The position numbers and the translations under genes are program-made. Of a DNA stretch of 58,442 nt, positions 1,139-58,442 are shown one piece after another. The notes under the pieces are model-generated. The model saw only the letters and a list, made by a program, of their open reading frames with translations. It had not been told where the DNA came from and ran no database searches. Location: the NCBI GenBank assembly GCA_019218315.1, contig JAHUUI010000003.1:1-58442 (forward strand), written 5' to 3'. Positions within the stretch are counted from its first letter, which is position 1, and each line of letters opens with the position of its first letter. The DNA is from Cardiobacteriaceae bacterium TAE3-ERU3 (GTDB lineage: Bacteria > Pseudomonadota > Gammaproteobacteria > Cardiobacteriales > Cardiobacteriaceae).

Positions 1139-1951
1139 CTATATAAGGTTAAGTATTGCTTTGGCTCGCTCTATAACCGGCTTATCGACCATTTTACCAT
1201 TAAGCTGGAATGCGCCTTCACCGTGTTGCGCACAAGCAGCAAGGATCTCTTTTGCCCAGGCAATCTGTTCCTCATGATGCACACCGTAAACTTGCTGCAC
1301 AACGTCTATCTGTGCCGGGTGGATGCACAATGCACCAGAAAACCCTTGTGATAGACGATGCTCACAGCGCTGCTTCCAGCCTTCTTGATCGCGAAAATCA
1401 GCATACACACTGTCAATCGGTGCGCTAAGGTTAGCCAATCTGCTGTGCAATGTCAGCTGAAAAGCGAGTTGGTCGAAATATGCTGTCGCGCCGCTACCTT
1501 CAGTAGCAAAGCGCAAATCGCCAGTAAAATCCAGCGCACCAAATGACAGCGCATAGACTCCTTCAGCTGTAGCAATATCAGCCAAGTTTGCCAGACCACG
1601 CGCTGACTCCAACAGTGGTAGCAGCGGTTTGGCAAAACGCTGCCATAACTTATTCAAGCTATCTGCCGTTTCAGCTTTGGCGAGCATAATGCCATCGAAA
1701 TGACCGAGTTTTGTCAGCGCTTCACAATCAGCTGTGTATTCAGTACTATCAGCTGCATTGATGCGAATCCATATTTGCTTGGCTTGTTGCTCGCGCAACT
1801 TGTCGATGGTTGCCTGACGTGCCGCAGGCTTGTCCGCAGGCTGTACCGCGTCTTCCCAGTCGATAATCACCGCATCCGCCTTACCCGCCAAAGCCTTGTC
1901 CAGCAAAGCAGTTTTATGCCCTGGTACAAACAAATATGCACTAGCCGCCAT
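1139..1951 (-). CDS. ccl: CitE-like (HpcH/HpaI aldolase family) lyase, probable citramalyl-CoA lyase
   Basis: A 270-residue cytoplasmic TIM-barrel lyase of the CitE family. Seen in the sequence: the N-terminal LFVPGHK segment, DWEDAV (31-36), the acyl-CoA-binding Arg of WIRIN (R63), LLESARGL (E115) and FGALDFTGDL (D141), the last two being the usual Mg2+ ligands, and a C-terminal CIHPAQ box (209-214). Within the family this fits citramalyl-CoA, malyl-CoA or citryl-CoA lyases. With the neighbouring CoA-transferase and MaoC hydratase the best reading is (S)-citramalyl-CoA cleavage to pyruvate and acetyl-CoA, the last step of itaconate breakdown. The ATG at 1951 overlaps the end of the upstream CoA-transferase gene by 11 bases and has GGAG just before it, so translation is probably coupled. 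A recombinase fragment follows directly after its stop codon. Confidence 0.8.
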   Translation of the reverse strand: MAASAYLFVPGHKTALLDKALAGKADAVIIDWEDAVQPADKPAARQATIDKLREQQAKQIWIRINAADSTEYTADCEALTKLGHFDGIMLAKAETADSLNKLWQRFAKPLLPLLESARGLANLADIATAEGVYALSFGALDFTGDLRFATEGSGATAYFDQLAFQLTLHSRLANLSAPIDSVYADFRDQEGWKQRCEHRLSQGFSGALCIHPAQIDVVQQVYGVHHEEQIAWAKEILAACAQHGEGAFQLNGKMVDKPVIERAKAILNLI

Positions 1952-3119
1952 TGCTGATCTCCATACCAAGCTCCTGCAAAATTGCTGCATTGTGTTCACC
2001 AAGCGCCGGCACACGACCCATTGCTGCATTAAAGCGGTTACTTTGCGCTGGTGGCAACAAGGCTGGCAAGCTGCCAATTGGTGAATCTATTTCACACCAA
2101 CGGTTACGCGCCTGCAGCTGTGGATGCGCCCATACATCACGCATGGTATTGACCTGCGCATTGGCGATTGCGCCAGCTTCAAGCCGCTGCACGACCTCTT
2201 CACGGCTCAGCTCTGCGAAAGTAGCTTCAATGATGGCGCGCAGGCGCTCACGGTTGGTTACGCGTTTGCTGTTTTGCGCAAAGTCAGCATCACTAGCCAA
2301 TTCTGGCTGCTCTAATACGACATTACAGAACTGCTGCCATTCACGCTCATTTTGCAAACCAAACATCACAATGCCGTCTTTACACGGGAATGGGCCATAA
2401 GGGTAAATAGTCGCATGTGCCGCCCAAGCACGTGGTGGCGCGGGCTGATCGTGATAAGTATAGTAGAGTGGGAAGCCCATCCATTCAGTCAGGCATTCGA
2501 GCATCGAAACATCAATATGGCTGCCTTCACCTGTCTTACCGCGTAATAACAGTGCATTAAGGATACTGCTATAGGCGTACATACCAGCACAAATATCAGC
2601 AATTGAAATACCGGTTTTTGCCATTTGCGCTTCTTCAGGACCGCCTGTTACCGAGAGCAGACCACTTTCACTTTGGATCAAGAGGTCATAAGCTTTTTTG
2701 TCGCGATACGGACCATCCATACCATATCCGGAAATATCACACACAATCAGGCGCGGGTGCTTCTCGCTCAGCTGCTTATAGCCCAACCCGAGGCGCTCAC
2801 TGGCACCCGGTGCAAGGTTCTGCACCAATACATCAGCTTGTGCCACCAAGCGCTGTAGCACTGCATGCCCTTCTTCACTTTTAACGTTGATCGCAAGGCT
2901 TTCCTTACCACGGTTAACCCACACAAAATGCGAAGCCAAGCCATCGACTCGCTCATCGTAACCGCGCGCAAAATCCCCACCATCAGGGCGCTCTACTTTG
3001 ATGACGCGCGCACCCATGTCCGCCAATTGTCGTGTACAGAACGGTGCGGCAATCGCGTGCTCAAGGCTGACAACGGTAATGCCGTCAAGCGGCAAAGTCT
3101 GTTTGTTCTGCTTAGTCAT
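1941..3119 (-). CDS. ict: CaiB/BaiF-family CoA-transferase, probable itaconate CoA-transferase
   Basis: A 392-residue class III CoA-transferase, full length for the family. The N-terminus (LDGITVVSLEHAIAAPFCTRQ, 11-31) and the KVERPDGGDF motif (41-50) are typical. The catalytic aspartate that forms the acyl anhydride is D175 in the IADICAG motif, and GEGSHIDVSML follows at about 198-208. These enzymes move CoA from a donor such as succinyl-CoA to a free carboxylic acid. By context the acceptor is probably itaconate, giving itaconyl-CoA for the hydratase encoded just upstream. Mesaconate, citramalate or another dicarboxylate remains possible, because substrate choice in this family cannot be read from motifs. 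The gene overlaps the upstream MaoC gene by 8 bases and the downstream lyase gene by 11, a tightly coupled operon. Confidence 0.85.
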   Translation of the reverse strand: MTKQNKQTLPLDGITVVSLEHAIAAPFCTRQLADMGARVIKVERPDGGDFARGYDERVDGLASHFVWVNRGKESLAINVKSEEGHAVLQRLVAQADVLVQNLAPGASERLGLGYKQLSEKHPRLIVCDISGYGMDGPYRDKKAYDLLIQSESGLLSVTGGPEEAQMAKTGISIADICAGMYAYSSILNALLLRGKTGEGSHIDVSMLECLTEWMGFPLYYTYHDQPAPPRAWAAHATIYPYGPFPCKDGIVMFGLQNEREWQQFCNVVLEQPELASDADFAQNSKRVTNRERLRAIIEATFAELSREEVVQRLEAGAIANAQVNTMRDVWAHPQLQARNRWCEIDSPIGSLPALLPPAQSNRFNAAMGRVPALGEHNAAILQELGMEISNGG

Positions 3120-3942
3120 TGAAAGTTACCTCTCCTTGCTGAATCAGGCCATTCTCGTTACACGCCCACACTTCGGCACGATTATCATCCACCATTCGTC
3201 CTTCAAAGCGGATGTCATGCGGCAATTGCGAAGGACGCACACCGCGATAACGGAACGTCTTCACTGTGCGCTCTGGAAATTGGCGCTGTGCACAATGTAG
3301 CGCCAATGTTGCGATCATCGGACCATGTACAACCAAATGATCATAACCTTCAACATCGTGGGTATAAGGATAGTCGTAATGAATACGGTGACCGTTAAAG
3401 GTCAAAGCTGAATAGCGAAATAGCAAAGTACTATCAGGGCTAAGCGTTTCCGACCACTCTGCTTGAGGTGCTGCATCACTGCTGGTTTTTGCTGGGCTTG
3501 GCTCGCGGTACACCACGTCCTGATCTTCATGAATACACACTTCACCATCTTGGCTGTATTCGTGATGCAGACGCACAAACACGAGCCGACCGGTCGAACC
3601 GTGCTTTTCTTTAATTGAGGTAATCGTCGTTTTGCACTGCGCTACTTCCCCAACGCGCAATGGCTTCACAAACTCGAATGCCCCTCCGGCCCACATGCGG
3701 ATCAGCCCATCCATTGGTGGCAAGAAATCTCCGCGCTTAGGATGGCCATCCCCACCCAGCTCCTCCGCCGGCAGCTCTGGCTGGAAAAACATCCATTGCC
3801 ACAACATCGGCAAATGCTCGCTATCAGGTGTATGGCAACGTGCACCAATGGTTGCCTGCATACGGCGAACCAGAATACGGCTGATTTCGTCTTCACTTTC
3901 GCGTGATTTTCCTAGCCAAGCATCAAACATTCTCTTCTCCAT
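3112..3942 (-). CDS. ich: MaoC-like acyl-CoA hydratase, probable itaconyl-CoA hydratase
   Basis: A 276-residue double-hotdog protein of the HTD2/MaoC-like type. The C-terminal hotdog carries the hydratase signature TFNGHRIHYD (181-190) followed by YDHLVVHGP (200-208); H188 and D190 are the likely catalytic residues. The N-terminal half (about 1-150) is the FAS1-type dehydratase-like hotdog. Family members include mesaconyl-C4-CoA hydratase and the itaconyl-CoA hydratase of Pseudomonas. Context with CaiB and CitE homologues points to hydration of itaconyl-CoA to citramalyl-CoA. It is the first gene of the operon and is transcribed divergently from the LysR regulator gene. The start at 3942 (MEKRMFD) could instead be the Met at residue 5. 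Confident in fold and family, moderately confident in substrate. Confidence 0.8.
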   Translation of the reverse strand: MEKRMFDAWLGKSRESEDEISRILVRRMQATIGARCHTPDSEHLPMLWQWMFFQPELPAEELGGDGHPKRGDFLPPMDGLIRMWAGGAFEFVKPLRVGEVAQCKTTITSIKEKHGSTGRLVFVRLHHEYSQDGEVCIHEDQDVVYREPSPAKTSSDAAPQAEWSETLSPDSTLLFRYSALTFNGHRIHYDYPYTHDVEGYDHLVVHGPMIATLALHCAQRQFPERTVKTFRYRGVRPSQLPHDIRFEGRMVDDNRAEVWACNENGLIQQGEVTFND

Positions 3943-4053
3943 CAGTTAGCAAGATAGGTATACTTTAGCTAGCTTTATGCATTATGGAAATCAAAATATT
4001 GCAAAGAGCATTTTTGTATTTAACAAACGCTACTAACAAATAACTTCAAGCCA
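3943..4053. promoter_or_regulatory. Divergent promoter region between hydratase and LysR genes
   Basis: These 111 AT-rich bases separate the catabolic operon (minus strand) from its LysR-type regulator (plus strand). LysR regulators typically bind T-N11-A sites in such intergenic regions and control both directions. I could not single out one convincing T-N11-A palindrome or a clear -35/-10 pair by eye, so only the region is annotated. Confidence 0.45.
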
Positions 4054-4938
4054 ATGACGCCCACCCTTAAAGATCTTGCCCTTTTTATTCATCTTGCTGA
4101 CGCCCAACACCTTGGCAAAGGTGCCGAACGCGCCGCATTATCTGCTTCTGCTGCGAGTATTCGCCTTAAAGCACTGGAAGAAACTTTAGATTCTTCGCTA
4201 TTTCGTCGTCATGCGAAAGGATTGACCCTAACTCCAGCAGGCGAAGTACTCTACCAACATGCACGCCAAGTTATGAGCAGTGTTGAAAGCCTTAAACGCG
4301 AATTCTCCCAGCCTGATCATGAAACAGGCAAATTGTGCATCTACGCCAACACCACCGCCGTCATCGACATCCTTCCCGACATCCTCTCTTCGTTCATGGT
4401 GGCACATCCAAAAGTCAGTATCGATTTACAGGAAAAAGACCAGCGCTACATCGTTCAAGGCGTTGAAGACGGCAAAGTAGATTTTGGCATTGTTTCAGGT
4501 GAAATCAGTGCGCCAGCGTTATCTGTTATTCCATTTAGCCGCGATCACCTATGCGTGGTCTACTCATCACACCACCACTTTCTGCACAAAGGTAACATTA
4601 ACTACCGCGATACATTTCATTACCCACACCTCGGGCTTAGCGCCGACACCACCCTACAACGCTTCCTGCGCAAGCAGCAGGAATTACTCGGCGTTGAATT
4701 ACACCAGCGTATAGAACTATCCGGATTCGAATCTTTATGCAGGATGATAGAGGCTGGCGTTGGCATTGGAGTCGTGCCTGAGTCAACCGTCAGGCGCTAC
4801 GCTCAAATGATGGATATCCAATTTTTGCGTATCAAAGACCCATGGGCTGTTCGTGTTCGTAGCATTATCGTCAGTAACTATCATGCGCAAACACCACTAT
4901 GTCGTATGCTGATTGACGCTATCAAACAGCAGGGCTAA
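4054..4938 (+). CDS. LysR-family transcriptional regulator
   Basis: A 294-residue LysR-type regulator of full length. Residues 4-62 form the winged HTH, with the typical AERAALSASAASIRLKALEE recognition region and LFRRHAKGLTLTPAGEVLY wing. The effector domain, from about residue 90, has the two-lobe periplasmic-binding fold pattern, including IEAGVGIGVVPES near residue 235. It stands divergent to the CoA-transferase/hydratase/lyase operon and upstream of the TRAP transporter genes, the usual place for a pathway-specific activator that senses the substrate or its CoA ester. In P. aeruginosa and Yersinia, itaconate operons also lie beside a LysR gene. Here that role is inferred from position, not from residues. 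Confidence 0.88.
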   Translation: MTPTLKDLALFIHLADAQHLGKGAERAALSASAASIRLKALEETLDSSLFRRHAKGLTLTPAGEVLYQHARQVMSSVESLKREFSQPDHETGKLCIYANTTAVIDILPDILSSFMVAHPKVSIDLQEKDQRYIVQGVEDGKVDFGIVSGEISAPALSVIPFSRDHLCVVYSSHHHFLHKGNINYRDTFHYPHLGLSADTTLQRFLRKQQELLGVELHQRIELSGFESLCRMIEAGVGIGVVPESTVRRYAQMMDIQFLRIKDPWAVRVRSIIVSNYHAQTPLCRMLIDAIKQQG

Positions 4939-4959
4939 ATAATAAACTCCAAACTTCTA

Positions 4960-4988
4960 TTGACTAAAGATAATATCCTGATAATAAT
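4960..4988 (+). promoter_or_regulatory. Possible sigma-70 promoter for the TRAP operon
   Basis: TTGACT (4960-4965), a 17-base spacer and AATAAT (4983-4988) lie in the 154-base gap between the LysR gene and dctP. The -35 is good and the -10 is weak. An activator-dependent promoter would be consistent with that. Confidence 0.35.
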
Positions 4989-5092
4989 AATTAGCGGATA
5001 GTAACCCGCCGAATCATCAGGCAGATGGCTTTTTAAACCAAGCACATCAAATCTCGGCACTACCATTCAACCTTTAACCTCGGGAAGATATT

Positions 5093-6076
5093 ATGAATAT
5101 GAAAAAAAGTATCCTAGCTGCAGCACTACTCGCAACTATGACGTATGCAAATGCAGAAACCACCATCAAATTCTCACACATCGTTGCTCCAGATACGCCT
5201 AAAGGCCAAATGGCACAAAAATTCAAAGAAATTATTGAAGAGCGCAGCAATGGAGACATCAAAGTTGATATCTTCCCAAATTCACAGCTCTATAACGACA
5301 ACAAAGTACTCGAAGCACTCCTGCTCGGTGATGTACAAATGGCTGCACCTTCACTGTCAAAACTGCAGCGCCTGACCACTAAAATGCAAGTCTATGATCT
5401 GCCTTTCCTGTTTAAAGACATGGATGCTGTTGAGCGTTTCCAGTCAAGCGAAGTTGGTCAGGAATTGTTAAAGACTGTAGAACCTAAAGGCATTGTTGCA
5501 TTAGGCTACCTGCACAACGGCTTAAAGCAGTTCTCTGCAAATGATCCTATTCGAGTTCCTGCTGATATGGACGGCAAAAAATTCCGTATCCAGCAATCAG
5601 ACGTACTCGCATCACAATTTGAAGCTGTTGGTGCGGTGCCAATCAAGAAGCCATTCTCTGAGGTTTATACCCTGCTGCAAACCAAAGCTATTGACGGTGC
5701 TGAAAACCCATGGTCAAACATCTATTCACAGAAATTCCATGAAATCCAGCCTTACATCACTGAATCAAATAACGGTTTGCTTGACTACGTCGTCATTACC
5801 TCAAAATCTTTCATGGATAGTCTCCCGGAAGACCAGCAAGCTCTCGTGCGCGAAGCAGCCGACGAAGCCATTGCTTATGGTAACGGCCTTGCAGCTGAAA
5901 TCAATAACCGCGACAAACAGAGCATTATCGATAGCGGCTACAGCGAAATCATTGAGTTGACTCCTGAAGAACGCAAACAATGGGTTGACGCTATGCGCCC
6001 TGTCTGGAAGCAATACGAAGACCAAATTGGTGCGGACGTTATTGCCGCGGCAGAAGCCAGCAACGAAGCACAATAA
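5093..6076 (+). CDS. dctP: TRAP transporter substrate-binding protein DctP
   Basis: A 327-residue periplasmic binding protein. The signal peptide (residues 1-21, Lys-Lys then a hydrophobic core ending in YANA) precedes mature ETTIKFSH. The family fingerprint is present: KVLEALLLGDVQMA (71-84), KKFRIQQSD with the conserved substrate-carboxylate-binding arginine R165, and SEVYTLLQTKAIDGAENPW (189-207). The protein captures an organic acid in the periplasm and delivers it to the DctQM membrane complex. Because the operon sits beside the Ict-Ich-Ccl genes, the ligand is probably itaconate or a related C4/C5 dicarboxylate. The sequence GGGAAG precedes the ATG. A hairpin with a T-tract follows the stop, which probably lets this subunit be made in excess over the membrane subunits. 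Confidence 0.92.
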   Translation: MNMKKSILAAALLATMTYANAETTIKFSHIVAPDTPKGQMAQKFKEIIEERSNGDIKVDIFPNSQLYNDNKVLEALLLGDVQMAAPSLSKLQRLTTKMQVYDLPFLFKDMDAVERFQSSEVGQELLKTVEPKGIVALGYLHNGLKQFSANDPIRVPADMDGKKFRIQQSDVLASQFEAVGAVPIKKPFSEVYTLLQTKAIDGAENPWSNIYSQKFHEIQPYITESNNGLLDYVVITSKSFMDSLPEDQQALVREAADEAIAYGNGLAAEINNRDKQSIIDSGYSEIIELTPEERKQWVDAMRPVWKQYEDQIGADVIAAAEASNEAQ

Positions 6077-11288: not shown

Positions 11289-12656
11289 CTAGCGCTTACC
11301 AGGTATGACCAGGGTGATGATCACACTCAGGTAGCAGAAGAAAGCGTAGGGCAAATAGCTCAGCACGCTGACATCGAGCTGCTGCGCGATAAAGACACCG
11401 CAGACGCTCCACGGCACCAGCGGGTTAACCACGGTACCGGCGTCTTCCAATGTTCGTGCAAGATTCTTGCGGTTGAGATCAAGGTCGTCGTAAATCGGCT
11501 TGAACGTCTCACCTGAAAGCAAAATACTCAAATACTGCTCTCCGATCAGTACGTTAACTCCAATACTGGTCGCGGCAACAGCCAATGTGGCACGGGTGGC
11601 ATTGATCAACCACGCTGTAATCGCGACAAGCAGGCGCGGTATAACGCCGAGTGCAAACAACAAGCCGCCCATGCTGACTGCGAGTACAACGATAGTCATG
11701 GTGAAGAACATGCTTTGCAGCCCGCCACGAGAGAACATACGCACTAAATCCGGTGCCCATTCCTGATTGGGTTCGAAGCCTGAAAAGAAAAATGCGCCGT
11801 AGCGTCCCCAATCTCCGTAACCGGAAAACTGCGCGATAACAATCGCGACAATCGAGGTATAGATCATCGCCATAACTGCCGGTACGCGGAACAGTACCAG
11901 CACGATCAGTAATGCAAACGGCAGCAAGGACAAAGGCTGGATCAGCCCAGTTGCCTGTAGTGAGTCACGGAACGCATTTATGCGCGAGATGTCACCAATA
12001 CTTTGTTCACTGGTCATGGAAATTGCACCGTAGATAATGCAGCAAATGATCAGTGCTGGAACAGTCGTGCGCATCATGTTTTTAATGTGTGCAAACAGAT
12101 CAATGCCGACAATCGAGGCGGCAATCGATGTGGTATCGGATAGCGGCGACATTTTATCACCGAGAAAAGCACCCGAGACTACGGCACCGGCGGTAATCGC
12201 CATATTGGCGTCAAACGCCTCGCCAATCCCCATGAATGCCACACCAAGCGTAGCAGCAGTGGTCAGACTACTACCCAACGCAATGCCGATTACACCAGTT
12301 ATCAGGAATACGGATACATAGAACCAGTCCGCACTCATCAATTGTGTGCCGTAATAAATCAGGCTGGGAATCGCACCACTGATTAATAATGCAGTGACAA
12401 GAATACCGATAAAGAAGAACAGATACAGCGCACCGACACTCGCCATCAAAGATTCTGCCATCGCCGCCTGCATCGCCGTATACGACACACCGCGTATCCG
12501 TCCGTATATCAGCAAGCAAACCATGACAAACACGATACCGATATGCGGCACCCAGCCAGTGCCAATAATCAGGAATGACAGCGTTGCAACCGCAAATGCC
12601 GCAACGATTGCAGCTTCAGCAAAACCCGGCTGGTGTAATGACTTGTTATCTGGCAT
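11289..12656 (-). CDS. nhaC: NhaC-family Na+/H+ antiporter
   Basis: A 455-residue polytopic membrane protein with about a dozen hydrophobic segments. Family hallmarks include ALGSSLTTAATLGVAFMGIG (about 125-144), VSGAFLGDKMSPLSDTTSIAASI (about 159-181) and GTVVNPLVPWSVCGVF near the C-terminus (about 415). NhaC antiporters exchange cytoplasmic Na+ for H+, and some paralogues exchange organic anions. In a cell using sodium-driven TRAP uptake, it could help maintain the sodium gradient. The gene abuts epmA without spacing. No specific regulatory element was seen in the short gap to mnmE. Confidence 0.88.
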   Translation of the reverse strand: MPDNKSLHQPGFAEAAIVAAFAVATLSFLIIGTGWVPHIGIVFVMVCLLIYGRIRGVSYTAMQAAMAESLMASVGALYLFFFIGILVTALLISGAIPSLIYYGTQLMSADWFYVSVFLITGVIGIALGSSLTTAATLGVAFMGIGEAFDANMAITAGAVVSGAFLGDKMSPLSDTTSIAASIVGIDLFAHIKNMMRTTVPALIICCIIYGAISMTSEQSIGDISRINAFRDSLQATGLIQPLSLLPFALLIVLVLFRVPAVMAMIYTSIVAIVIAQFSGYGDWGRYGAFFFSGFEPNQEWAPDLVRMFSRGGLQSMFFTMTIVVLAVSMGGLLFALGVIPRLLVAITAWLINATRATLAVAATSIGVNVLIGEQYLSILLSGETFKPIYDDLDLNRKNLARTLEDAGTVVNPLVPWSVCGVFIAQQLDVSVLSYLPYAFFCYLSVIITLVIPGKR

Positions 12657-48403: not shown

Positions 48404-49771
48404 CTAACACAGCACATGTAACGCAAGCCCCCCGGTAGAAGTCTCGCGGTATTTGAGGCTCATGTCCTTGCCGGTTTCGTACATGGTTTTAATGACTTCA
48501 TCGAGCGTCACCACCGGTTTGCTTTTGCGCATTAGTGCCATGCGTGCGGCGTTGACCGCCTTCACTGACGACACTGCATTGCGCTCGATGCACGGTACTT
48601 GCACCTGCCCGCCAACTGGATCGCAGGTCAGGCCAAGGTGATGTTCCATGGCAATTTCCGCCGCTTCACACACCTGTGAGGCTGTACCGCCCTGCAAGTC
48701 GGTCAAACCACCTGCAGCCATCGAACACGCCACGCCAATCTCACCCTGGCAACCAACTTCTGCACCCGAAATAGACGCATTCATTTTGTACAGGCTGCCG
48801 ATTGAGCTACACACCAGCAGATAGCGCACTACCTGATCATCGGTGAGCGGATGGATAAAGCGGTCGTAATATGCCAGTACTGCTGGCACGATACCGCACG
48901 CGCCATTGGTTGGCGCAGTGACGACTCGCCCACCGGCAGCGTTTTCTTCATTGACTGCCATCGCAATCATGTTCAACCAATCGATAATCCGCATCGGATC
49001 TTGCTCAAAGTGCTGACCGCTATCTTCAAGCTGCTGCCGCAATTGCGGCGCACGGCGCGGAATACGTAATTTACCCGGTAATACGCCTTCGTTATCCAAG
49101 CCGCGGCGGATACACGCCTGCATCACCTGCCACACTTTCACGCAATAATCGCGCACTTCCTGCTCTGAACGCAGCGCTGCTTCATTGCGCAGGGTAATGG
49201 TCGAAAGGCGCAGATTGTGTTCGGCACAGTGCGCCATTAAATCCTTGGCACTTTGATACGGGTAAGGCACGGGATGCGATACTTCACGCGCACTTTCACT
49301 AAAGTGCGCTTCATCAACAATAAAACCACCGCCAATCGAGTAATACGCCTTTTCAAACAGCTTGTTTTCGTCATGGTCAAACGCCTGCAAAATCATGCCG
49401 TTTTCATGCAACGGCAAATTGTCCTTGTGAAAGACAAAATCCGCATCATAATCGAACGCCACTGAATCGCGATCCGGCTGTGGAATTTCGCCATATTGCA
49501 GGATATGCGCAATCATCTGCGGCATGGCATCGGTATCGACCGTTTCCGGTGCTTCACCGGCCAGCCCTGCGATAATTGCATGGTCTGTGCCGTGTCCGCG
49601 TCCGGTGTAGGACAGCGAACCATAGACATTAGCCTTGAAACGTACGGTTTGCTCATAGACACCGGCATCCTTGAGCGCTTGCACAAACAAGCGCCCCGCT
49701 TTCATCGGTCCGACAGTATGCGAACTCGACGGACCGATACCAATTTTGAACATTTCAAAGATGCTGATCAT
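48404..49771 (-). CDS. sdaA: L-serine ammonia-lyase (iron-sulfur)
   Basis: A 455-residue one-chain L-serine dehydratase. Residues 1-160 form the beta (ACT-like) domain starting [19 protein letters not shown]. The catalytic alpha domain contains the [4Fe-4S] cysteines in [26 protein letters not shown] and LTCDPVGG (about residues 285-395), and ends with the usual penultimate catalytic-site cysteine (HVLC). It converts L-serine to pyruvate and ammonia. It lies 28 bases after soxG in the same direction, so it is the likely end of the creatine/sarcosine pathway: sarcosine-derived glycine and C1-folate give serine, then pyruvate. The cluster needs the oxygen-labile cluster to be kept intact. Confidence 0.95.
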
Positions 49772-49799: not shown

Positions 49800-50402
49800 T
49801 TATACAACGCGCATCCCGTACGGACGCGCGGCTTTGACCAGGAGTTTCCACACGTAATCGGCGAAGCTGCGACGGATGATGATGTCGTACTGTGCATCAT
49901 CACAGCGGTGCAACAAGACATGTGCCTGACTGACCACGGTACCGACACAATCACCGACTTTCATACTTTCGACATCGTATGGGGTGAGATGACGCAAAAC
50001 CGTATTTACGTCTGCGCCCGACAACACCAGTGCGGTCACGCCACCACTGTTATCAACCACTTGTGCCGATACGTTTCCCACCGCCTGCTGCAAAGCGGCG
50101 AGATATTGCGCTTTGTCGTCATAGGCACAAATCACCGCCCACTCATCAGGCGACAGCCACAATACGCGCACTTTGTCGTTTTTGGCACTGCTGCGCGCAG
50201 CGGTTGGCCATGTCACGCCGAGGGCTTTCCCAGCAGCACTGGTAAACGCGCTGTCGTTGCCGTGTCCGCGCACGATGATGTAACCCGTCTGCGGCCATTC
50301 GCAGACATTCAAGCCCGCATTACCGCTTGTGCCTTGTGCTTCTGTCCACGCGCTGATTTGATGCGTCAGCGGTGTAACCCAATGTTGTTTCATATTATCC
50401 AT
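49800..50402 (-). CDS. soxG: Sarcosine oxidase gamma subunit
   Basis: A 200-residue protein with the SoxG folate-binding-type pattern: VRVLWLSPDEWAVIC (about 78-92), VVDNSGGVTALVLSGADVNTVLRHLTPYDVES and a C-terminal YDIIIRRSFADYVWKLLVKAARPYG. It is the gamma subunit of the heterotetrameric (TSox) sarcosine oxidase. It overlaps soxA by eight bases; a second ATG just after the soxA stop is also possible. Confidence 0.93.
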   Translation of the reverse strand: MDNMKQHWVTPLTHQISAWTEAQGTSGNAGLNVCEWPQTGYIIVRGHGNDSAFTSAAGKALGVTWPTAARSSAKNDKVRVLWLSPDEWAVICAYDDKAQYLAALQQAVGNVSAQVVDNSGGVTALVLSGADVNTVLRHLTPYDVESMKVGDCVGTVVSQAHVLLHRCDDAQYDIIIRRSFADYVWKLLVKAARPYGMRVV

Positions 50403-53400
50403 GCTGACGCTCTCCTTTCGGGTCTACAAAGATGGTGCTTTTGCTGACTTTAGCCGGAATGATGTTGCCGTCTGCGTAGGCATACACGGTGCTGCCATCG
50501 CGGTTCACACCATCGCGCACCAATGCCAAGGCAATACTGCGCCCCAAAAATGCGCTGTAATAGCTTGAAGTAACGTGCCCCAGTGGCAAAATTGGTGTTT
50601 CACCTGCGCCTGTTTTCGGCAACGGCTGTTCGCGCTCCATGATTTGTGCGCCTTCGACCAGCACGGTTTGCGGGTCTTCGGTGAGCAGTCCGACAAACTG
50701 TTTTCGCCCCTCTTTGGCTGTATCACTGCGCGACAGCGAACGGCGGCCGAGGAAGGAAAACGGCTTTTTCATGCCCACTGCCCAACCCATGCCGAGATCA
50801 ATCGGTGATACCGAGCCGTCAGTGTCTTGCCCTGCGATGATGAAGCCTTTTTCCGCACGCAGAACGTGCATGGTTTCCGTGCCATACGGGGTGATATTGT
50901 ACGGCGCGCCGGCTTCCATCACCTTGCCCCACAGGTATTCACCGTAACCGGCTTCAACGTTGATTTCAAATGCCATCTCGCCCGAGAAACTGATACGGAA
51001 TACCCGCGCCGGCAAAGCGGCAACCGTGCCCGCACGCCAGTCCATGAATTTGAACGTTTCGGGGTCAAAGTCGATGTCGTCACACAATGCTTGCAACACC
51101 TTGCGCGAGTTTGGCCCGACCACAGCCACGGTTGCCCAGTGGTCAGTGACCGAGGTCAACCACACATCGAGCTCCGGCCATTCGGTTTGGTGCCACTGTT
51201 CGAGCCAATCCAGCACACGTGCCGCGCCGCCCGTGGTCGTGGTCATGTGGAACTGATTGTCGCTGATACACGCGGTGACACCATCGTCCATCACCATGCC
51301 GTTTTCATCGAGCATCAAACCGTAGCGGCATTTGCCCGGTGCAAGCTTGAGCCACGCATTACTGTAAATACGGTTCAGGAATTCACGCGCGTCTTTGCCG
51401 TCAACCTGAATTTTGCCCAGCGTGGTTGCATCCATCACCGCGACGCTGTCACGCGCGGCTGCGCATTCACGCTTGACCGCCGCGTGCATGTCCTCGCCAT
51501 TTTTCGGGAAGTACCACGGCCGCCACCACTGCCCGACCACTTCCATCGGCGCACCGGCGGCAACGTGTGCCGGATGAATCGAGGTAGTACGTTCAGGGGC
51601 AAAGGTATTGCCCTGCATACTGCCAGCGAGCACGCCAAAGCTGACCGGCGTATAAGCCGGACGATAAGTCGTGGTGCTAATGTCGCTAACCGGCACATTC
51701 AGCGCCTTGGCGGTGAGCATGAAGCTGTTGACGCTGGTCAGCTTGCCTTGGTCAGTACCAAAGCCAAACGCAGTGTAGCGCTTGACGTGTTCGATATTGT
51801 GGTAATTCTCGCGTACCGCCAGTTCGATGTCGGCGGCGGTCACGTCATTCTGGTAATCAACAAACGCTTTTGCACCGTGGCCTTCCGGCTGACCGTCATC
51901 AAGACGCACTGCCATCGCAGGTGCATTGCCGTTAAACGCTGCAGTCTGCGGTACGCTCACCGTAGCGTTTTTATCCAACGCGGCAAGGGCTGCTTGGGTG
52001 CTTTGCTGTACTTGCGCGAGGGTGTCCGCCCAATGAAAATGCCCCGTCACTGCACCAATGCCGCAAATGCCTTGTTTGCTGTCGGCAAACTTATCGGGAA
52101 TGACAAAACTCATCGCCGCATCCGACCACTGCGGACGGCTGGTATCGTGGCAATACAGATGCACAGTCGGGGTCAGGCCACCACTCGAACAGACCACATC
52201 AACCGCGACTTGCTCGCTTTGTCCGTTACTGACGTGACGCAATAGCGCGCCTTTAACTGCTTTGCTGCCCTCGACTTGCGCAATGCCGTAACCACTGAAC
52301 ACACGCACTGCCGCAGGCAAATCAGCTGGTGCTTGCGCATCTGGTCGCACATCGGCAACCGTTACTTGTGCGCCTGCGGCCGCCAAATCCCGCACGGCCT
52401 CGTAAATGCCGTCATGACTGCCACACACCAATACCGACCCGCCGAGCAACACGCCGTAGCGGTTGAGATAAGTTTGCACTGCCGACAGGGTAAATACCCC
52501 CGGCAAGTCGTTATTGCCAAACACCAACGGGCGCTCAATTGCACCGCTGGCGAGCAGAATTTGTTTGGCACGAATCTTGTGCAAGCGCTGGCGCGGCTGA
52601 TTGGCTGCACGCGCCGCCAATGGCAGATGGTCTTGTACCAGTTCCACCGCCTGCACGAGATTGTGGTCGTGCTTGGCAAAGGCCGTGGTGCGCGATAACA
52701 ACGTCAGGTTGTCGAGCTGCGCCAGTTCGGCAAGCAGCTTGTCGAGGTATTCCACCGCGCTTTGTCCGTCAAATTTCGCTTGTGCATCGCTGAGCAGCCA
52801 ACCGCCCAATTCTTGTTGCTCGTCCACGAGCAAGGTTTTGCACCCCGCTTCTGCCGCCGCTTTTGCCGCAAGCAGACCACTCAAGCCGCCGCCAATCACC
52901 AGCACGTCAACGTGATGATGCAGATGGTCGTACCATTCTTCATCGCGCTTGGTCGGCGCATAGCCGAATCCGGCAAAGCCACGAATCACGTTTTCATAAT
53001 ACGGCCACAATTTGCGCGGCCATTTGAATGTCTTGCTGTAAAAGCCGGCCGGCATCAGGTTTTTGCCCAATTTGCCGAGCAAGCGCTTGGTATCAAAACC
53101 GCCTGATGTGCCGGTTGTACGCCGCGCATACAGGCCATCGTATAATTCCGCCTGTGTCGCCTTGACGTTCGGCGTGCTGTACGCGCCGGTTTCGAGTTGC
53201 AACAAGGCATTGGGTTCTTCCGAACCGGCGGCCATGATGCCGCGTGGACGGCCGTATTTGTAGCTGCTCGCCAGTTCCTGCACACCGTTGACCAACAGTG
53301 CCGAAGCCAGCGTATCACCGACCAGTCCCTGATAGGTTTCGCCGTCAAAGGTAAAGGTCAGACGCTTGCCGTAATCAACCCGCGTTGACGGTTTGTGGAT

Positions 53401-53415
53401 GCGTTTTGCACTCAT
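50395..53415 (-). CDS. soxA: Sarcosine oxidase alpha subunit
   Basis: A 1006-residue flavoprotein. The N-terminal segment has the GETYQGLVGDTLASALLVNGV ferredoxin-like start (about 16-36). The NAD-binding Rossmann domain follows, with VLVIGGGLSGLLAAKAAAEAG (about 160-180) and the central SVLVCGSHDGIYEAVRDLAAAG. The C-terminal ~400 residues are a glycine-cleavage T-protein (GcvT)-like tetrahydrofolate-binding domain. With SoxB it oxidises sarcosine to glycine, passing the methyl group to THF as 5,10-methylene-THF. The ATG at 53415 (MSAKRIHKPSTRVDYG) overlaps the soxD stop (ATGA). The GC content is higher than in the neighbouring AT-rich gene. Confidence 0.96.
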   Translation of the reverse strand: MSAKRIHKPSTRVDYGKRLTFTFDGETYQGLVGDTLASALLVNGVQELASSYKYGRPRGIMAAGSEEPNALLQLETGAYSTPNVKATQAELYDGLYARRTTGTSGGFDTKRLLGKLGKNLMPAGFYSKTFKWPRKLWPYYENVIRGFAGFGYAPTKRDEEWYDHLHHHVDVLVIGGGLSGLLAAKAAAEAGCKTLLVDEQQELGGWLLSDAQAKFDGQSAVEYLDKLLAELAQLDNLTLLSRTTAFAKHDHNLVQAVELVQDHLPLAARAANQPRQRLHKIRAKQILLASGAIERPLVFGNNDLPGVFTLSAVQTYLNRYGVLLGGSVLVCGSHDGIYEAVRDLAAAGAQVTVADVRPDAQAPADLPAAVRVFSGYGIAQVEGSKAVKGALLRHVSNGQSEQVAVDVVCSSGGLTPTVHLYCHDTSRPQWSDAAMSFVIPDKFADSKQGICGIGAVTGHFHWADTLAQVQQSTQAALAALDKNATVSVPQTAAFNGNAPAMAVRLDDGQPEGHGAKAFVDYQNDVTAADIELAVRENYHNIEHVKRYTAFGFGTDQGKLTSVNSFMLTAKALNVPVSDISTTTYRPAYTPVSFGVLAGSMQGNTFAPERTTSIHPAHVAAGAPMEVVGQWWRPWYFPKNGEDMHAAVKRECAAARDSVAVMDATTLGKIQVDGKDAREFLNRIYSNAWLKLAPGKCRYGLMLDENGMVMDDGVTACISDNQFHMTTTTGGAARVLDWLEQWHQTEWPELDVWLTSVTDHWATVAVVGPNSRKVLQALCDDIDFDPETFKFMDWRAGTVAALPARVFRISFSGEMAFEINVEAGYGEYLWGKVMEAGAPYNITPYGTETMHVLRAEKGFIIAGQDTDGSVSPIDLGMGWAVGMKKPFSFLGRRSLSRSDTAKEGRKQFVGLLTEDPQTVLVEGAQIMEREQPLPKTGAGETPILPLGHVTSSYYSAFLGRSIALALVRDGVNRDGSTVYAYADGNIIPAKVSKSTIFVDPKGERQHG

Positions 53416-53717
53416 GACTGCGCCTCCTGCTGTTCTTGTTGCCAAGCGACTTTGCCGTCTTGCATGGTGTAAGTTGCGGCGATTTCATTGCTGACGTTGT
53501 GGCGCTTGACCGCGATAAATTTGTGGCAGCCTGCGCCGTGCGACCACTGTTCCCACGTCCAACCCTTGGGGTTATCACGGAAAAAGACGTAGTCGCCCCA
53601 CGCTTCATCTGTCGCTTCATCAGGATTGGCGGGACGCACAATATACGCCTCGCCTGCATAGTGAAATTCTTGTTCGTCGCGGTGTTCGCCGCAGTGTGGA
53701 CAATAAATATAAAGCAT
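53412..53717 (-). CDS. soxD: Sarcosine oxidase delta subunit
   Basis: A 101-residue protein with the CPHCGEHRDEQEFHY zinc-site N-terminus (6-20), the YVFFRDNPKGWTWEQWSHGAGCHKF segment (43-67) and FIAVKRHNVSNEI, diagnostic for SoxD. It binds a zinc ion and bridges the alpha and beta subunits. It is 14 bases downstream of soxB and overlaps soxA by four bases. Confidence 0.95.
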   Translation of the reverse strand: MLYIYCPHCGEHRDEQEFHYAGEAYIVRPANPDEATDEAWGDYVFFRDNPKGWTWEQWSHGAGCHKFIAVKRHNVSNEIAATYTMQDGKVAWQQEQQEAQS

Positions 53718-53731
53718 TGTGTCTTCCTTAC

Positions 53732-55000
53732 TCAGTGCGCTACGCCGGCCGCGCCGTGTTCGTCAATCAAATGGCCGGTGTGGAAACGGTCCATACTGAA
53801 CGGCTTGGCAAGTGGATGCGGCTCGTCATTGGCGAGGGTCGCGGCAAAGACGTTGCCGGAACCCGGTGTCGCCTTGAAGCCGCCCGTGCCCCAACCACAA
53901 TTGAAATACAATCCCTGCACCGGTGTTTTGGAAATAATCGGGCAAGCGTCAGGGCAAGTATCGACAATACCGCCCCATTGCCGATTCATGCGCACGCGCG
54001 ACAAGGTTGGGAACATCTCGATAATTGCCGCCGCGGTATGCTCAATCAAAAATTCGCTGCCGCGCTGGCCGTAGCCAAGATAGCCGTCAATACCCGCACC
54101 GATGACGTATTCACCTTTGTCCGACTGACTGATGTAGCCGTGTACCGCGTTGGACATAATCACCGTGTCAATCGAGCGCTGCATGGACTCAGACACGAAT
54201 GCCTGCAACGGATGGCTTTGCAATGGCAGACGCAAGCCCGCCATCTTCGCCAATACGGAAGAATGACCCGCCGCAACACAACCAACCCGCCCTGCTTTGA
54301 CGTAGCCTTGCGAGGTTTGCAAGCCCTTGATGTGGCCATTTTCAATATCCATACCGGTCACTTCGCAGTTTTCAATCAAATCGACACCGAGCTTGCTCGC
54401 GGCACGGGCAAAGCCGCGCGCGACCGCATCGTGGTGCGCGACCCCGCCACGCGGCTGATAGCTCGCACCCAATACCGGAAAACGCGTACTCGACGAGCAA
54501 TCAAGCAATGGAATGCGCTCTTTGAGCGTCTTGGCATCGACCACTTCGGCATCAATGCCCTGCAAGTGGTTGGCATTGACGCGGCGCTCGATGTCGCGCA
54601 TATCCTGCAAATTATGACCGAGGTTATACACGCCCCGTTGTGAAAACAGCACGTTGAAATTCAAATCATCGCTCAAGCCTTCCCACAGGCGCAGCGAGTG
54701 TTCGTATAAATACGCCGCTTCGTCCCACAGGTAATTCGAGCGCACGATGGTGGTATTACGCGCAGTATTGCCGCCGCCGAGATAGCCCTTTTCCAGTACC
54801 GCAATCTTGCCAACATTATGCTCTTTGGCGAGGTAATAAGCAGTCGCCAAGCCGTGTCCGCCACCGCCGACAATCACCACGTCATACGACGGCTGCAATT
54901 CACCGCGCCGCCATGCCTCCGGCCAGTCTTGATGCTTACTCAAGCTATGCTTGAATAGACTTAGCCACGAATAATGCCCGTCTTTGTTTTCATTTTTCAT
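53732..55000 (-). CDS. soxB: Sarcosine oxidase beta subunit
   Basis: A 422-residue FAD-dependent subunit. DVVIVGGGGHGLATAYYLAKEH (40-61) is the Rossmann FAD-binding start, and ARNTTIVRSNYLWDEAAYLYEHS (80-102) is the SoxB-specific segment. The C-terminal GLYFNCGWGTGGFKATPGSG is the FAD-pyrimidine site. It carries out the oxidation of sarcosine. An AAGGAT ribosome-binding site precedes the ATG. The preceding gene stops only 18 bases upstream and is an AT-rich membrane-protein gene, so soxB probably shares its transcript. Confidence 0.96.
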   Translation of the reverse strand: MKNENKDGHYSWLSLFKHSLSKHQDWPEAWRRGELQPSYDVVIVGGGGHGLATAYYLAKEHNVGKIAVLEKGYLGGGNTARNTTIVRSNYLWDEAAYLYEHSLRLWEGLSDDLNFNVLFSQRGVYNLGHNLQDMRDIERRVNANHLQGIDAEVVDAKTLKERIPLLDCSSSTRFPVLGASYQPRGGVAHHDAVARGFARAASKLGVDLIENCEVTGMDIENGHIKGLQTSQGYVKAGRVGCVAAGHSSVLAKMAGLRLPLQSHPLQAFVSESMQRSIDTVIMSNAVHGYISQSDKGEYVIGAGIDGYLGYGQRGSEFLIEHTAAAIIEMFPTLSRVRMNRQWGGIVDTCPDACPIISKTPVQGLYFNCGWGTGGFKATPGSGNVFAATLANDEPHPLAKPFSMDRFHTGHLIDEHGAAGVAH

Positions 55001-55018
55001 GGTAAATCCTTTATATGG

Positions 55019-55861
55019 TCAAAAAATAAAATAAACAGCTATAGATGAAATAAAAGAAACTACAAATGCTATTATCACCCCCCATTTTATTTTACTTTTA
55101 AAGCTTTCTTTTTTATCATATTTATTAACAACATCACCCCAATAAAAAACATAATTATCAAATAATCCAAAAAACTTTTTTGAACTTAGAAATATAATAA
55201 TCGAACAAAAACACATTAGAAGAATAATTGTAATAGTAAAAATAAAAATAAAATCGTTATAATCATTACTATATTTTTCAGAAATTAAAAAATTAATCTT
55301 CTCATCAATACCCTTAGACATTAATTCAGAAAAATTAATTTTTTCAATTACTAATTTACGCGAATAATTAAGGTATATTATAAGTGGAACAAATGAAAGC
55401 GGCATAAATGAAAGTATATATTTTGATATAGTTTTTATAAAAGTTGGAAACCAGCTTTTCTTCTCTTGTATCCGTAACACTTGAGAGTCAATTTCATCCA
55501 TTAATAGTAAGCACCATTCTCTATTTTCATACTCAACATTAATTTTTATTTTTATTTCATCATTTTTTGAAAAAACAACAGAACACAATGTCCTTTTGTA
55601 TTCAATATTACTATCATCTAATATTTTTATTTCTATCTTGGATATTTCCCTACCACCCGCATTTTCATCTTCTAAAATCCTTTCTAATCTATCTGTTTCA
55701 AAAGAAAAATCATCTTCTCTTTCCATTTCAAACACAACATAACTATTATCAATTTTACTCGATTTCTCTTTTAATATTGAGTAGATTTTGGTTAAATGCG
55801 TTTCTGTTAAAATGAAATTAACATTCTTATATTTTTTAAATTTTCTTGCCCTATCCTGCAT
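55019..55861 (-). CDS. AT-rich membrane protein of unknown function
   Basis: A 280-residue protein with a basic N-terminus (MQDRARKFKKYKN), a mixed alpha/beta acidic domain (about 15-130), and three hydrophobic segments (about 150-168, 207-227 and 262-279). The second is preceded by an Asn/Asp-rich loop. The gene is far more AT-rich than the sox genes beside it and uses AAA/AAT/ATT codons heavily. An AAAGGAT ribosome-binding site precedes the ATG. I do not recognise the family. It is the first gene before soxB, with only 18 bases between them, so it appears inserted between the sox promoter and soxB. Foreign origin is likely. Function unknown. Confidence 0.75.
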   Translation of the reverse strand: MQDRARKFKKYKNVNFILTETHLTKIYSILKEKSSKIDNSYVVFEMEREDDFSFETDRLERILEDENAGGREISKIEIKILDDSNIEYKRTLCSVVFSKNDEIKIKINVEYENREWCLLLMDEIDSQVLRIQEKKSWFPTFIKTISKYILSFMPLSFVPLIIYLNYSRKLVIEKINFSELMSKGIDEKINFLISEKYSNDYNDFIFIFTITIILLMCFCSIIIFLSSKKFFGLFDNYVFYWGDVVNKYDKKESFKSKIKWGVIIAFVVSFISSIAVYFIF

Positions 55862-56056
55862 AATCTATCCTTTAAGGTTTAAATTAAAGTGAAATATAAT
55901 TAGAAATAAGTTGCCACTTTCAAGCTGAGCTTACATAAGCTACGATACGAATAATTTTCACTATTGAATTTCGATGTGCTTTCTTCTTATTTCATAATTC
56001 AAAATACTGGCTATCGGAGTGACCGGCATTTTTCTGCTTTCCTTATTTCACGATCC

Positions 56057-57358
56057 TCAGCGTAACTCATCACGGCTACGCTCCGTGGCTTGTGCCATCG
56101 CAATAACGGCGACTACAGCAATGGCAATCAGATACCACGCCGGCGCTAGCTTTGAACCAGTTACATCAATCAGCCAGGTAGCGATTAATGGTGCCGTACC
56201 ACCAAGTAAGGCATTAGCAAGGTTAAAGGTAAATGCAAAGCCGGTGTAGCGCACATTAGTCGGGAAAATCTCACTGAGAAAAGCGGGCAATGTGCCATCA
56301 TTCATTGATAGCATCGCACCAAAGACAATCTCGATCAGGATGATAAACAGTACGCTTTCGGTATTGAGAATACTGAACAGCGGTACAGTAAAGACGATAA
56401 ATACCACACATGCAGCCATCAGCATTTTCTTGCGCCCAAAGCGATCCGACAACGTTCCCATCAAGAAAATCAGACCGATATAAGTGAACAGCGATACCGA
56501 TGTCGCAATAAACGACGTCGTTTCATCAATCCCAATTTCCTGAGACAAATAAGTCGGCATATAGCTAAGCACGAGATAGAACGCCACTGCATTGAGACTT
56601 GCCACCATAAAGGCAATCACCAACTGCCGGCGGTGGTGAATAAACAGGTGCTTGATCGGCGTGTGGTGATTGGCATTTTTTTCTTCCATCGCCTGAAAAT
56701 GCGGGGTTTTTTGCAGTTTTAAGCGAATATAGCGGCCAATCAATCCCATCGGACCAGCCATCAAAAATGGAATACGCCAGCCCCAATCAAGCATAAATTC
56801 TTCACTGAGCATATTGGTCATCACCGCAGCCATCAGCGAACCAAGCAACAACCCGGCAGCCGTACTTGCCGGCACGATGCTGGTGTAAATTCCACGCTTA
56901 CCTTTTGGCGCGTATTCAGCAAGAAATGCCGAAGCACCTGCATATTCACCGGATGCCGAAAAACCTTGAACCATACGCAAAATCAGCAGCAGAATCGGCG
57001 CGAATACGCCAATCAATGCATAACTGGGAATCAGTGCAATTAAAAAGGTCGAGACCGACATGATCAGAATTGACCATGACAACGCATTCCGGCGGCCAAA
57101 CTTATCGCCAATCGTGCCCCAGAAAATGCCGCCAAATGGACGGACAATAAATGAGATGGCAAATACCGCAAAAGTAGAGAGTAGCGCTGCTGTACTGTCT
57201 TGCTCAGGAAAGAATACTTTGGAAATAATGACGGCAAAATAACCATAAGCCGCGTAGTCAAACCATTCAACGAAATTTCCGATAAAGCATGCCGTTGAAG
57301 CCTTGCGCAAATCCTGCTCCTTAATCAGCGGCAGGTCTCCGGTGGTGGTCGAAGACAT
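56057..57358 (-). CDS. MHS-family MFS transporter, probable creatine or related-metabolite importer
   Basis: A 433-residue 12-TM major facilitator of the metabolite:H+ symporter (MHS) type. FIGNFVEWFDYAAYGYFAVII (25-45), IVRPFGGIFWGTIGDKFGRRN (about 71-91), RMVQGFSASGEYAGASAFLAEYAPKGKRG (about 127-155) and LSDRFGRKK are MHS signatures. MHS carriers take up compatible solutes and organic acids such as proline, betaine, citrate and alpha-ketoglutarate. Its gene lies between creatinase and the sox operon on the same strand, so creatine or sarcosine is the likely substrate. An AAGGAGAGA ribosome-binding site precedes the ATG. The gap to creatinase is 48 bases, suggesting cotranscription. Confidence 0.88.
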   Translation of the reverse strand: MSSTTTGDLPLIKEQDLRKASTACFIGNFVEWFDYAAYGYFAVIISKVFFPEQDSTAALLSTFAVFAISFIVRPFGGIFWGTIGDKFGRRNALSWSILIMSVSTFLIALIPSYALIGVFAPILLLILRMVQGFSASGEYAGASAFLAEYAPKGKRGIYTSIVPASTAAGLLLGSLMAAVMTNMLSEEFMLDWGWRIPFLMAGPMGLIGRYIRLKLQKTPHFQAMEEKNANHHTPIKHLFIHHRRQLVIAFMVASLNAVAFYLVLSYMPTYLSQEIGIDETTSFIATSVSLFTYIGLIFLMGTLSDRFGRKKMLMAACVVFIVFTVPLFSILNTESVLFIILIEIVFGAMLSMNDGTLPAFLSEIFPTNVRYTGFAFTFNLANALLGGTAPLIATWLIDVTGSKLAPAWYLIAIAVVAVIAMAQATERSRDELR

Positions 57359-57406
57359 ATATCTCTCCTTGCTTTAAGTAAAGCTTATTTAATAATTAGC
57401 AGCCAA

Positions 57407-58442
57407 TTATGCCGCAATAATGTTGTGCGCTGGCCCGTAAGGAAAGCCAGTGATATTCTCAGCACCGTTTTCAGTGATGACGAGAATATCGTGCTCACGG
57501 TAGCCTCCAGCGCCCGGCTGGCCGTCAGGCAACATGATCATCGGTTCGATCGAGACCACCATACCCGGCTCCAGCACCGTCTCGACGTCCTCACGGAACT
57601 CAAGCCCCGCCTCACGACCAAAATAGTGCGACAGCACGCCGAATGAGTGACCATAACCGAAAGTACGGTATTTAAGCAAACCGTAATGCTTGAAAATTTT
57701 GTTTAATTCTTTCGCCACATCACAACAACGCAGCCCCGGCTTGAGCATTGAAAGCCCTGCTTCGTGTACTTCAATATTCACCGCCCATAGCTTGCGTGAG
57801 GCTGCATCCGGCTCGCCAAAAAACAGCGTGCGTTCTAATGCGGTGTAATAGCCACCAATCATGGAAAAGCAGTTCAGGCTTAAAATGTCACCGCGTTGCA
57901 CCCTACGACTGGTAACCGGATTATGTGCACCATCGGTATTGATGCCGGATTGAAACCACGTCCAAGTATCCATCAGCTCTGCATGCGGAAAACGCTTGGC
58001 AATTTCACGAACCATCGCCTGTGTGGATGCCAGTGCAACCTCATATTCAGGTACGCCTTCTTTTATTGCGGCAACCAATGCTGCTCCACCCACATCACAA
58101 ACCTGCGCACCCTGCTTAATATGGGCTATTTCTTCAGCCGACTTAATCATGCGCATATGCATACACGCCGTACTGACATCAGCAAATTCAACCTCTGGCA
58201 AGGCCGCCTGTAAGCGGGAAAATCGCTCTAACGGCAAATGATCAAACTCGATACCAACCCGCCCTTTGTTTGCAACCAACTCACGCACAGCTCGGTAATA
58301 ATTATCGCGGTTCCAATCGGTGTAAACCAAGTTATCTCCATTAACCGTACGCCACCATGGTTGTCCACCATCAATATTTGCTGAAATAGTAGTCAGCGTA
58401 TCTTGCGTCACGACCAGCCCATACGACCGGCCAAATTGGCAA
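57407..58442 (-). CDS. Creatinase (creatine amidinohydrolase), 5' part beyond window
   Basis: A partial gene of 344 codons plus stop; the frame stays open to the end of the window. It lacks only about the first 60 residues compared with the ~403-residue Pseudomonas enzyme as I recall it. It has the pita-bread fold: CQFGRSYGLVVTQ, then TISANIDGGQPWWRT, DTWTWFQSGINTDGAHNPVT with the catalytic histidine (H232 in P. putida), ALERTLFFG, FGYGHSFGVLSHYFGREAG and GYREHDILVITENGAENITGFP. It hydrolyses creatine to sarcosine and urea without metal. Sarcosine is then handled by SoxBDAG. Similarity to creatinase is much stronger than to generic Xaa-Pro peptidases. Confidence 0.95.
   Translation of the reverse strand, partial: CQFGRSYGLVVTQDTLTTISANIDGGQPWWRTVNGDNLVYTDWNRDNYYRAVRELVANKGRVGIEFDHLPLERFSRLQAALPEVEFADVSTACMHMRMIKSAEEIAHIKQGAQVCDVGGAALVAAIKEGVPEYEVALASTQAMVREIAKRFPHAELMDTWTWFQSGINTDGAHNPVTSRRVQRGDILSLNCFSMIGGYYTALERTLFFGEPDAASRKLWAVNIEVHEAGLSMLKPGLRCCDVAKELNKIFKHYGLLKYRTFGYGHSFGVLSHYFGREAGLEFREDVETVLEPGMVVSIEPMIMLPDGQPGAGGYREHDILVITENGAENITGFPYGPAHNIIAA

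What the first reader, a model, noticed from the sequence alone, without database searches (positions are those of the whole stretch)
49800..58442. Creatine-to-pyruvate pathway in one block
Creatinase makes sarcosine and urea, an MHS carrier fits creatine uptake, SoxBDAG turns sarcosine into glycine and methylene-THF, and SdaA turns the serine made from these into pyruvate and ammonia. Only GlyA is missing from the window. Together with the itaconate block this points to a cell living on animal metabolites. Urea and ammonia release could also affect local pH.
Basis: partly seen in the sequence, partly recalled or inferred. Interest (0 to 1): 0.62.

Follow-up and report, generated by a model that had tools for sequence, protein, structure and literature searches.

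The report
Creatine-to-pyruvate gene block
A small bacterial genome carries, side by side, the genes expected to take up creatine and turn it into pyruvate, a pathway already known in other bacteria but here apparently put together from parts of different origin.

Summary
The block is real and the gene names hold. On one strand lie creatinase (cut by the window end; it starts about 200 bases further on the same contig), an MHS carrier, an unexplained AT-rich 280-aa ORF, soxBDAG and sdaA. Creatinase aligns without a gap to a solved creatinase and keeps the active-site letters that could be checked. SoxB and SoxD match solved tetrameric sarcosine oxidase. A GbdR-like AraC regulator is divergent, just outside the window. 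The one glyA found lies on another contig. Urease, creatininase and a full urea carboxylase were not found, so urea is probably excreted. No Rieske oxygenase was found, so sarcosine probably comes from creatine or from outside, not from betaine. The pathway is in print, and the same gene set occurs beside creatinase in other loci. New detail: trees point to mixed ancestry. sdaA is the family's own gene; sox is shared with 1 of 11 other family genomes; a close creatinase is in none of those 11. Similar blocks in Burkholderiaceae use other sox and sdaA lineages, so assembly was probably independent. Verdict: largely correct, ordinary biochemistry, modest evolutionary interest. Activity, uptake and growth on creatine are untested.

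The parts
57407..58442 (-). creatinase (creatine amidinohydrolase), 344 of 411 codons; the rest lies beyond the window end
   Evidence: 626 bits to 1chm, ungapped; active-site positions
56057..57358 (-). MHS-family carrier, probably for creatine
   Evidence: TIGR00883 407 bits, under its cut-off of 443; neighbour of creatinase in related loci
55019..55861 (-). 280-aa AT-rich orphan ORF, probably membrane-bound (inferred from hydrophobic stretches); role unknown
   Evidence: 23.7% G+C; only in the own genome of 115 searched
53732..55000 (-). soxB, sarcosine oxidase beta subunit
53412..53717 (-). soxD, sarcosine oxidase delta subunit
50395..53415 (-). soxA, sarcosine oxidase alpha subunit with folate-binding GCV_T domain
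49800..50402 (-). soxG, sarcosine oxidase gamma subunit
48404..49771 (-). sdaA, one-chain iron-sulfur L-serine ammonia-lyase

Best explanation
A creatine catabolic block. The MHS carrier imports creatine (inferred). Creatinase splits it into sarcosine and urea (inferred from sequence and active site). Tetrameric sarcosine oxidase SoxBDAG oxidises sarcosine to glycine, H2O2 and methylene-tetrahydrofolate (known for the family). GlyA, encoded elsewhere, joins glycine and the methylene group into serine. SdaA deaminates serine to pyruvate and ammonia. The sum is creatine + O2 to urea + pyruvate + NH3 + H2O2, with all three sarcosine carbons entering pyruvate. Urea is probably released, since no urease was found. 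A divergent GbdR-like regulator probably switches on at least the creatinase-carrier part. The block was probably put together in this lineage from a foreign creatine module, a sarcosine module shared with one family member, and the family's own sdaA.
For: Family matches; creatinase ungapped over 399 residues to 1chm and letters invariant at 12 positions examined in 82 proteins, 10 of them as I recalled them; SoxB, SoxD and SoxA match solved tetrameric enzymes; one glyA; carrier and similar regulator lie near creatinase in many related loci; carrier grouped with those of creatinase loci; a homologous carrier gene is needed for growth on creatine in Corynebacterium glutamicum (PMC8864220, passages; homology to the window's carrier not tested); no urease or creatininase; no Rieske oxygenase; sdaA and sox trees.
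Against: No expression or activity data. SoxD, SoxG and carrier miss NCBIfam cut-offs. A 195-nt gap and an AT-rich orphan ORF separate the creatine half from the sarcosine half. The creatinase tree does not resolve the window's place, so the donor is unknown. Most related loci lack sox within the DNA held: soxA and soxB in 8 of 79, many loci being cut short.
Confidence: 0.8

Rival explanations
1. The halves are separate units. Creatinase and carrier answer to the divergent regulator; the orphan ORF with soxBDAG-sdaA has its own promoter and serves sarcosine from any source.
For: 195-nt gap and sharp drop in G+C at the join; a promoter-like site at 55923-55896 on the - strand; different ancestry of the halves.
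Against: Promoter-like sites are no more frequent than in shuffles (15 against 13.0, sd 3.2) and terminator-like ones neither (15 against 15.1); all genes run on one strand with an 18-nt gap from the orphan ORF to soxB. The pathway reading stays the same.
Confidence: 0.3
2. Sox and sdaA mainly serve betaine, dimethylglycine or sarcosine from outside, and creatinase is a side branch.
For: soxBDAG serves betaine breakdown elsewhere (PMC3691474, passages); the regulator is nearest to GbdR, a choline-metabolism regulator; G004 has sox without a close creatinase.
Against: No Rieske oxygenase of the GbcA kind in the genome. No dimethylglycine-dehydrogenase-like fusion among the listed SoxA-model matches of this genome, a weak point because only 11 of 23 candidates were scored and the list is cut. 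Sarcosine taken up from outside is not excluded.
Confidence: 0.1
3. The M24 protein is not a creatinase but a peptidase or another hydrolase.
For: The M24 fold is shared by prolidases, ectoine hydrolase and others; no NCBIfam model passed its cut-off for the piece in the window.
Against: Three solved creatinases score 566-627 bits, the next chain (Xaa-Pro dipeptidase) 98 bits; active-site letters kept; sarcosine genes beside it.
Confidence: 0.04

Closest known systems
glyA-soxBDAG-sdaA-purU clusters of Arthrobacter and Corynebacterium sp. U-96 (PMC3534580, passages read; primary papers cited there not read)
   Same: soxBDAG with sdaA for sarcosine to pyruvate; Arthrobacter sp. Rue61a grows on creatine
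   Different: There glyA and purU are in the cluster; here glyA lies elsewhere, and creatinase and a carrier are in the block
Creatinase-sdaA-soxBDAG blocks of Paraburkholderia, Burkholderia and Crenobacter (L040, L043, L053, L070)
   Same: Same enzymes on one strand; L070 also shows a carrier match, cut by the locus end
   Different: Gene order differs (sdaA before soxB), and their SoxA and SdaA belong to other clades
Creatinase-carrier pairs with a similar regulator in Acinetobacter (L028, L031, L033, L034, L046)
   Same: Creatinase followed by a 59-62% identical carrier; regulator 39-40% identical
   Different: Regulator on the same strand, no sox or sdaA found in the DNA held
CreT of Corynebacterium glutamicum and the carrier beside creatinase in Pseudomonas putida (PMC8864220, passages read)
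   Same: Carrier gene beside creatine genes; the creT mutant loses growth on creatine
   Different: No sequence comparison with the window's carrier was made
Transferred glyA-soxBDAG-purU island of Colwellia psychrerythraea 34H (PMC3691474, passages read)
   Same: soxBDAG of raised G+C, read as transferred
   Different: Serves betaine breakdown; no creatinase in the passages read
CahR-regulated creatine use in Pseudomonas putida KT2440 (known only from its citation in PMC12951989; paper not held)
   Same: Creatine use under a dedicated regulator (from the title)
   Different: Not read; relation of CahR to the regulator here is not tested

Membership tests
Creatinase (EC 3.5.3.3) | Full-length sequence match to solved creatinases, far above other M24 proteins | tested here: met
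   626, 596 and 566 bits against 98 for the next chain
Creatinase (EC 3.5.3.3) | Active-site residues (numbers recalled) | tested here: met
   12 positions examined, all invariant in 82 proteins; 10 carry the recalled letter, 2 that I had marked doubtful carry A and L in all rows, as in the 1chm alignment, so my recall of those was wrong
Creatinase (EC 3.5.3.3) | Hydrolysis of creatine to sarcosine and urea | not testable with these tools
   Needs an assay
Heterotetrameric sarcosine oxidase | Four subunits soxB, D, A, G in order | tested here: met
   SoxD and SoxG pass Pfam but not NCBIfam cut-offs
Heterotetrameric sarcosine oxidase | Flavin-binding histidine of SoxB and zinc ligands of SoxD (roles recalled) | tested here: met
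   Read from the alignments
Heterotetrameric sarcosine oxidase | Folate-binding GCV_T domain in SoxA | tested here: met
   PF01571, 219.9 bits
One-chain iron-sulfur L-serine ammonia-lyase | TIGR00720 over its cut-off | tested here: met
   698.8 bits against 345.1
Creatine carrier of the CreT / creatinase-neighbour kind | Groups with carriers near creatinase genes | tested here: met
   with 32 carriers from creatinase loci, apart from 2 more distant carriers; the sample was chosen for creatinase, so the test is weak
Creatine carrier of the CreT / creatinase-neighbour kind | Transport of creatine | not testable with these tools
   Needs an uptake assay
GbdR (NF052371) | Score over the curated cut-off of 480 bits | tested here: not met
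   285.9 bits; a relative of GbdR, not GbdR

The most novel reading that the evidence does not exclude
A small-genome bacterium assembled its own creatine-to-pyruvate operon. It joined a foreign creatine module, a sarcosine module shared with one family member and its native serine deaminase, independently of the Burkholderiaceae blocks that hold the same enzymes from other lineages. An AT-rich orphan protein now sits at the seam and may have a part in uptake or control.
Probability: 0.5. Interest if true: 0.4.

Novelty: new member of a known kind. Interest (0 to 1): 0.28.

Why it matters
It gives a compact, testable case of a bacterium that can probably live on creatine, an abundant compound of vertebrate muscle, while releasing urea. 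Coupling of creatinase, sarcosine oxidase and serine deaminase from different lineages in different bacteria supports the view that pyruvate is the end point of the pathway. The enzymes themselves are well known.

Tried and rejected
An empty site in the same-genus genome G001 was sought. Citrate synthase and the genes beside it are conserved there (L122), and ptsI with HPr are present too, but some 780 kb away, so no clean insertion site could be shown.

Recent transfer of sdaA together with sox was my first idea, because both are richer in G+C than the neighbour gltA. It was rejected: sdaA groups with the family's own genes and the same-genus copy has similar G+C (0.518 against 0.532).

The orphan ORF was searched in Pfam, NCBIfam, PADLOC, PHROGs, the PDB, plasmids, phages, IMG/VR and 115 genomes. 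Only two weak PHROGs matches appeared (E 0.012 and 0.021). Its model has mean pLDDT 47, so no fold search was run.

A name for the organism was sought and not found; no call names it or its class. The published S. ornithocola draft has 39% G+C and 2.52 Mb (PMC5313612, whole text), against 46.7% in the window and 2.41 Mb for the genome, so that species is not supported.

Active-site numbers of creatinase were looked for in PMC7568399 (passages) without success and stay recalled.

Paper searches. None of their listings showed a paper on this locus, but the organism is not known, so this says little. Nine papers were opened: PMC5313612 whole; PMC8864220, PMC3691474, PMC7568399, PMC12951989, PMC7921472, PMC3534580, PMC5436106 and PMC6742649 as passages.

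Full report
What is there. The - strand from about 58,642 (beyond the window) down to 48,404 carries creatinase, an MHS carrier, a 280-aa ORF, soxB, soxD, soxA, soxG and sdaA. From the coordinates, the gaps are 48, 195, 18 and 14 nt, then overlaps of 4 and 8 nt within sox, then 28 nt to sdaA; 531 nt separate sdaA from citrate synthase. sdaA lies outside its coordinates, creatinase is cut by the window end, and the 280-aa ORF was not mentioned.

Creatinase. The full frame aligns without a gap over 399 residues to 1chm (creatine amidinohydrolase; of Pseudomonas putida, recalled) at E 1.7e-187. Two other solved creatinases score 596 and 566 bits, and the next chain, a dipeptidase, 98 bits. Twelve positions were examined in 82 aligned proteins, the window's included, and each is invariant. 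Ten carry the active-site letter I recalled; at two that I had marked as doubtful my recalled letter is in no row, so my recall there was wrong.

Sarcosine oxidase and serine deaminase. SoxB and SoxA match solved tetrameric enzymes at E 8.6e-164 and 4.1e-221, and SoxD at 5.7e-20. The flavin histidine of SoxB and the zinc ligands of SoxD are kept (read from the alignments; roles recalled). SoxA has the folate-binding GCV_T domain. SoxD and SoxG fall below NCBIfam cut-offs but pass Pfam's. SdaA passes its model by a wide margin and is the only match in the genome.

Carrier and regulator. Counts used matches covering at least 75% of the query; shorter ones were dropped. A carrier at least 50% identical starts within 700 nt downstream in 21 of 73 loci with at least 1,500 nt held, and within 6.5 kb on the same strand in 26 of 50 with at least 7,000 nt held. 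A similar regulator lies within 1 kb upstream in 59 of 72, divergent in 9 of 72. In the carrier tree the window's protein is sister to five Acinetobacter carriers (100/97, long branches) within 33 carriers, the other 32 all from creatinase loci. Among the DNA held, the closest regulators are those of Psychrobacter (42-44%), then Acinetobacter and the unnamed G048 (39-40%). The regulator scores 286 bits with the GbdR model, below its cut-off of 480. In Corynebacterium glutamicum the carrier gene creT is needed for growth on creatine, and a similar carrier lies beside creatinase in P. putida (PMC8864220, passages read); the window's carrier was not compared with those two.

The rest of the pathway. 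glyA gives one match, on another contig next to nrdR. GcvT is present; other glycine cleavage genes were not searched. Urease and creatininase gave no match. The best urea carboxylase match is a 450-aa frame far below cut-off, probably biotin carboxylase (the name is inference). A Rieske oxygenase of the GbcA kind gave no match in this genome, while G014 has two. Hence creatine or outside sarcosine, not betaine, is the likely source of sarcosine, and urea probably leaves the cell. One catalase-family match of 54 bits exists; other H2O2-removing enzymes were not searched.

Origins. Of 57 genomes searched (own, same genus, family, order and class; several incomplete), a close creatinase occurs in 2: the window's own and G014 of the same order (58%). 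The other listed matches are 21-36% identical or less, M24-type proteins (21-31% in the list). Of the 11 other family genomes none has a close creatinase. A SoxA over the cut-off occurs in 5 of 57: own, G004 (same family), G013, G014 and G048; two genus-mates of G004 (G009, G011) do not reach it. The window's SoxB and SoxA are sisters of G004's (100/100 in both trees), apart from the Burkholderiaceae sequences. SdaA groups with those of eight other family members (100/100), apart from the sdaA of Burkholderiaceae blocks. So the three parts seem to have different histories, and blocks with the same enzymes in Burkholderiaceae and Crenobacter (L040, L043, L053, L070) were built from other copies. 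Against this: the creatinase tree leaves the window's place unresolved, and old vertical sox with repeated loss is not excluded. G+C is 53-57% in sox and sdaA, 47-52% in carrier, creatinase and regulator, and 23.7% in the orphan ORF. Only 1 of 1129 windows of that length in four stretches of the genome, the window included, is as low, and it probably overlaps the ORF.

One unit or two. The 195-nt gap, the drop in G+C and a promoter-like site before the orphan ORF leave room for a second transcript, but promoter-like and terminator-like sites are no more frequent than in shuffles (15 against 13.0, and 15 against 15.1).

Known or new. In 8 of 79 loci soxA and soxB lie near creatinase and in 12 of 79 sdaA does; with at least 9 kb held on both sides it is 6 and 6 of 44, both in 5. 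L070 holds creatinase, sdaA and soxBDAG on one strand, with a carrier match cut by the locus end. A glyA-soxBDAG-sdaA-purU cluster for sarcosine to pyruvate, in a strain that grows on creatine, is in print (PMC3534580, passages read). The finding is a new member of a known kind, with a modestly interesting assembly history and an unexplained orphan gene at its seam.

Noticed in passing
window 55019-55861 (-): AT-rich (23.7% G+C) 280-aa orphan ORF between carrier and soxB, without a significant match in any library or genome searched.
   Followed up: partly
window 1139-6076: Itaconate-type set at Pfam level: HpcH/HpaI-type lyase, CoA-transferase III, FAS1_DH-like dehydratase, then divergent LysR and a DctP binding protein. 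Not examined further.
   Followed up: no
G004 and G005 (search): The citrate synthase query gave no match at E <= 0.001 in these two family genomes (2 of 7 genomes searched), although one of them is a single contig.
   Followed up: no
L121 6342-12997: In G004 the sox genes lie beside an NhaC/ArcD-type antiporter gene (29% identical to the window's 11289-12656), with no creatinase or sdaA match in the 20 kb fetched.
   Followed up: partly
L157: The only catalase-family match in the genome scores 54 bits over a 343-aa frame, perhaps a small catalase-related peroxidase; notable because sarcosine oxidase makes H2O2.
   Followed up: partly
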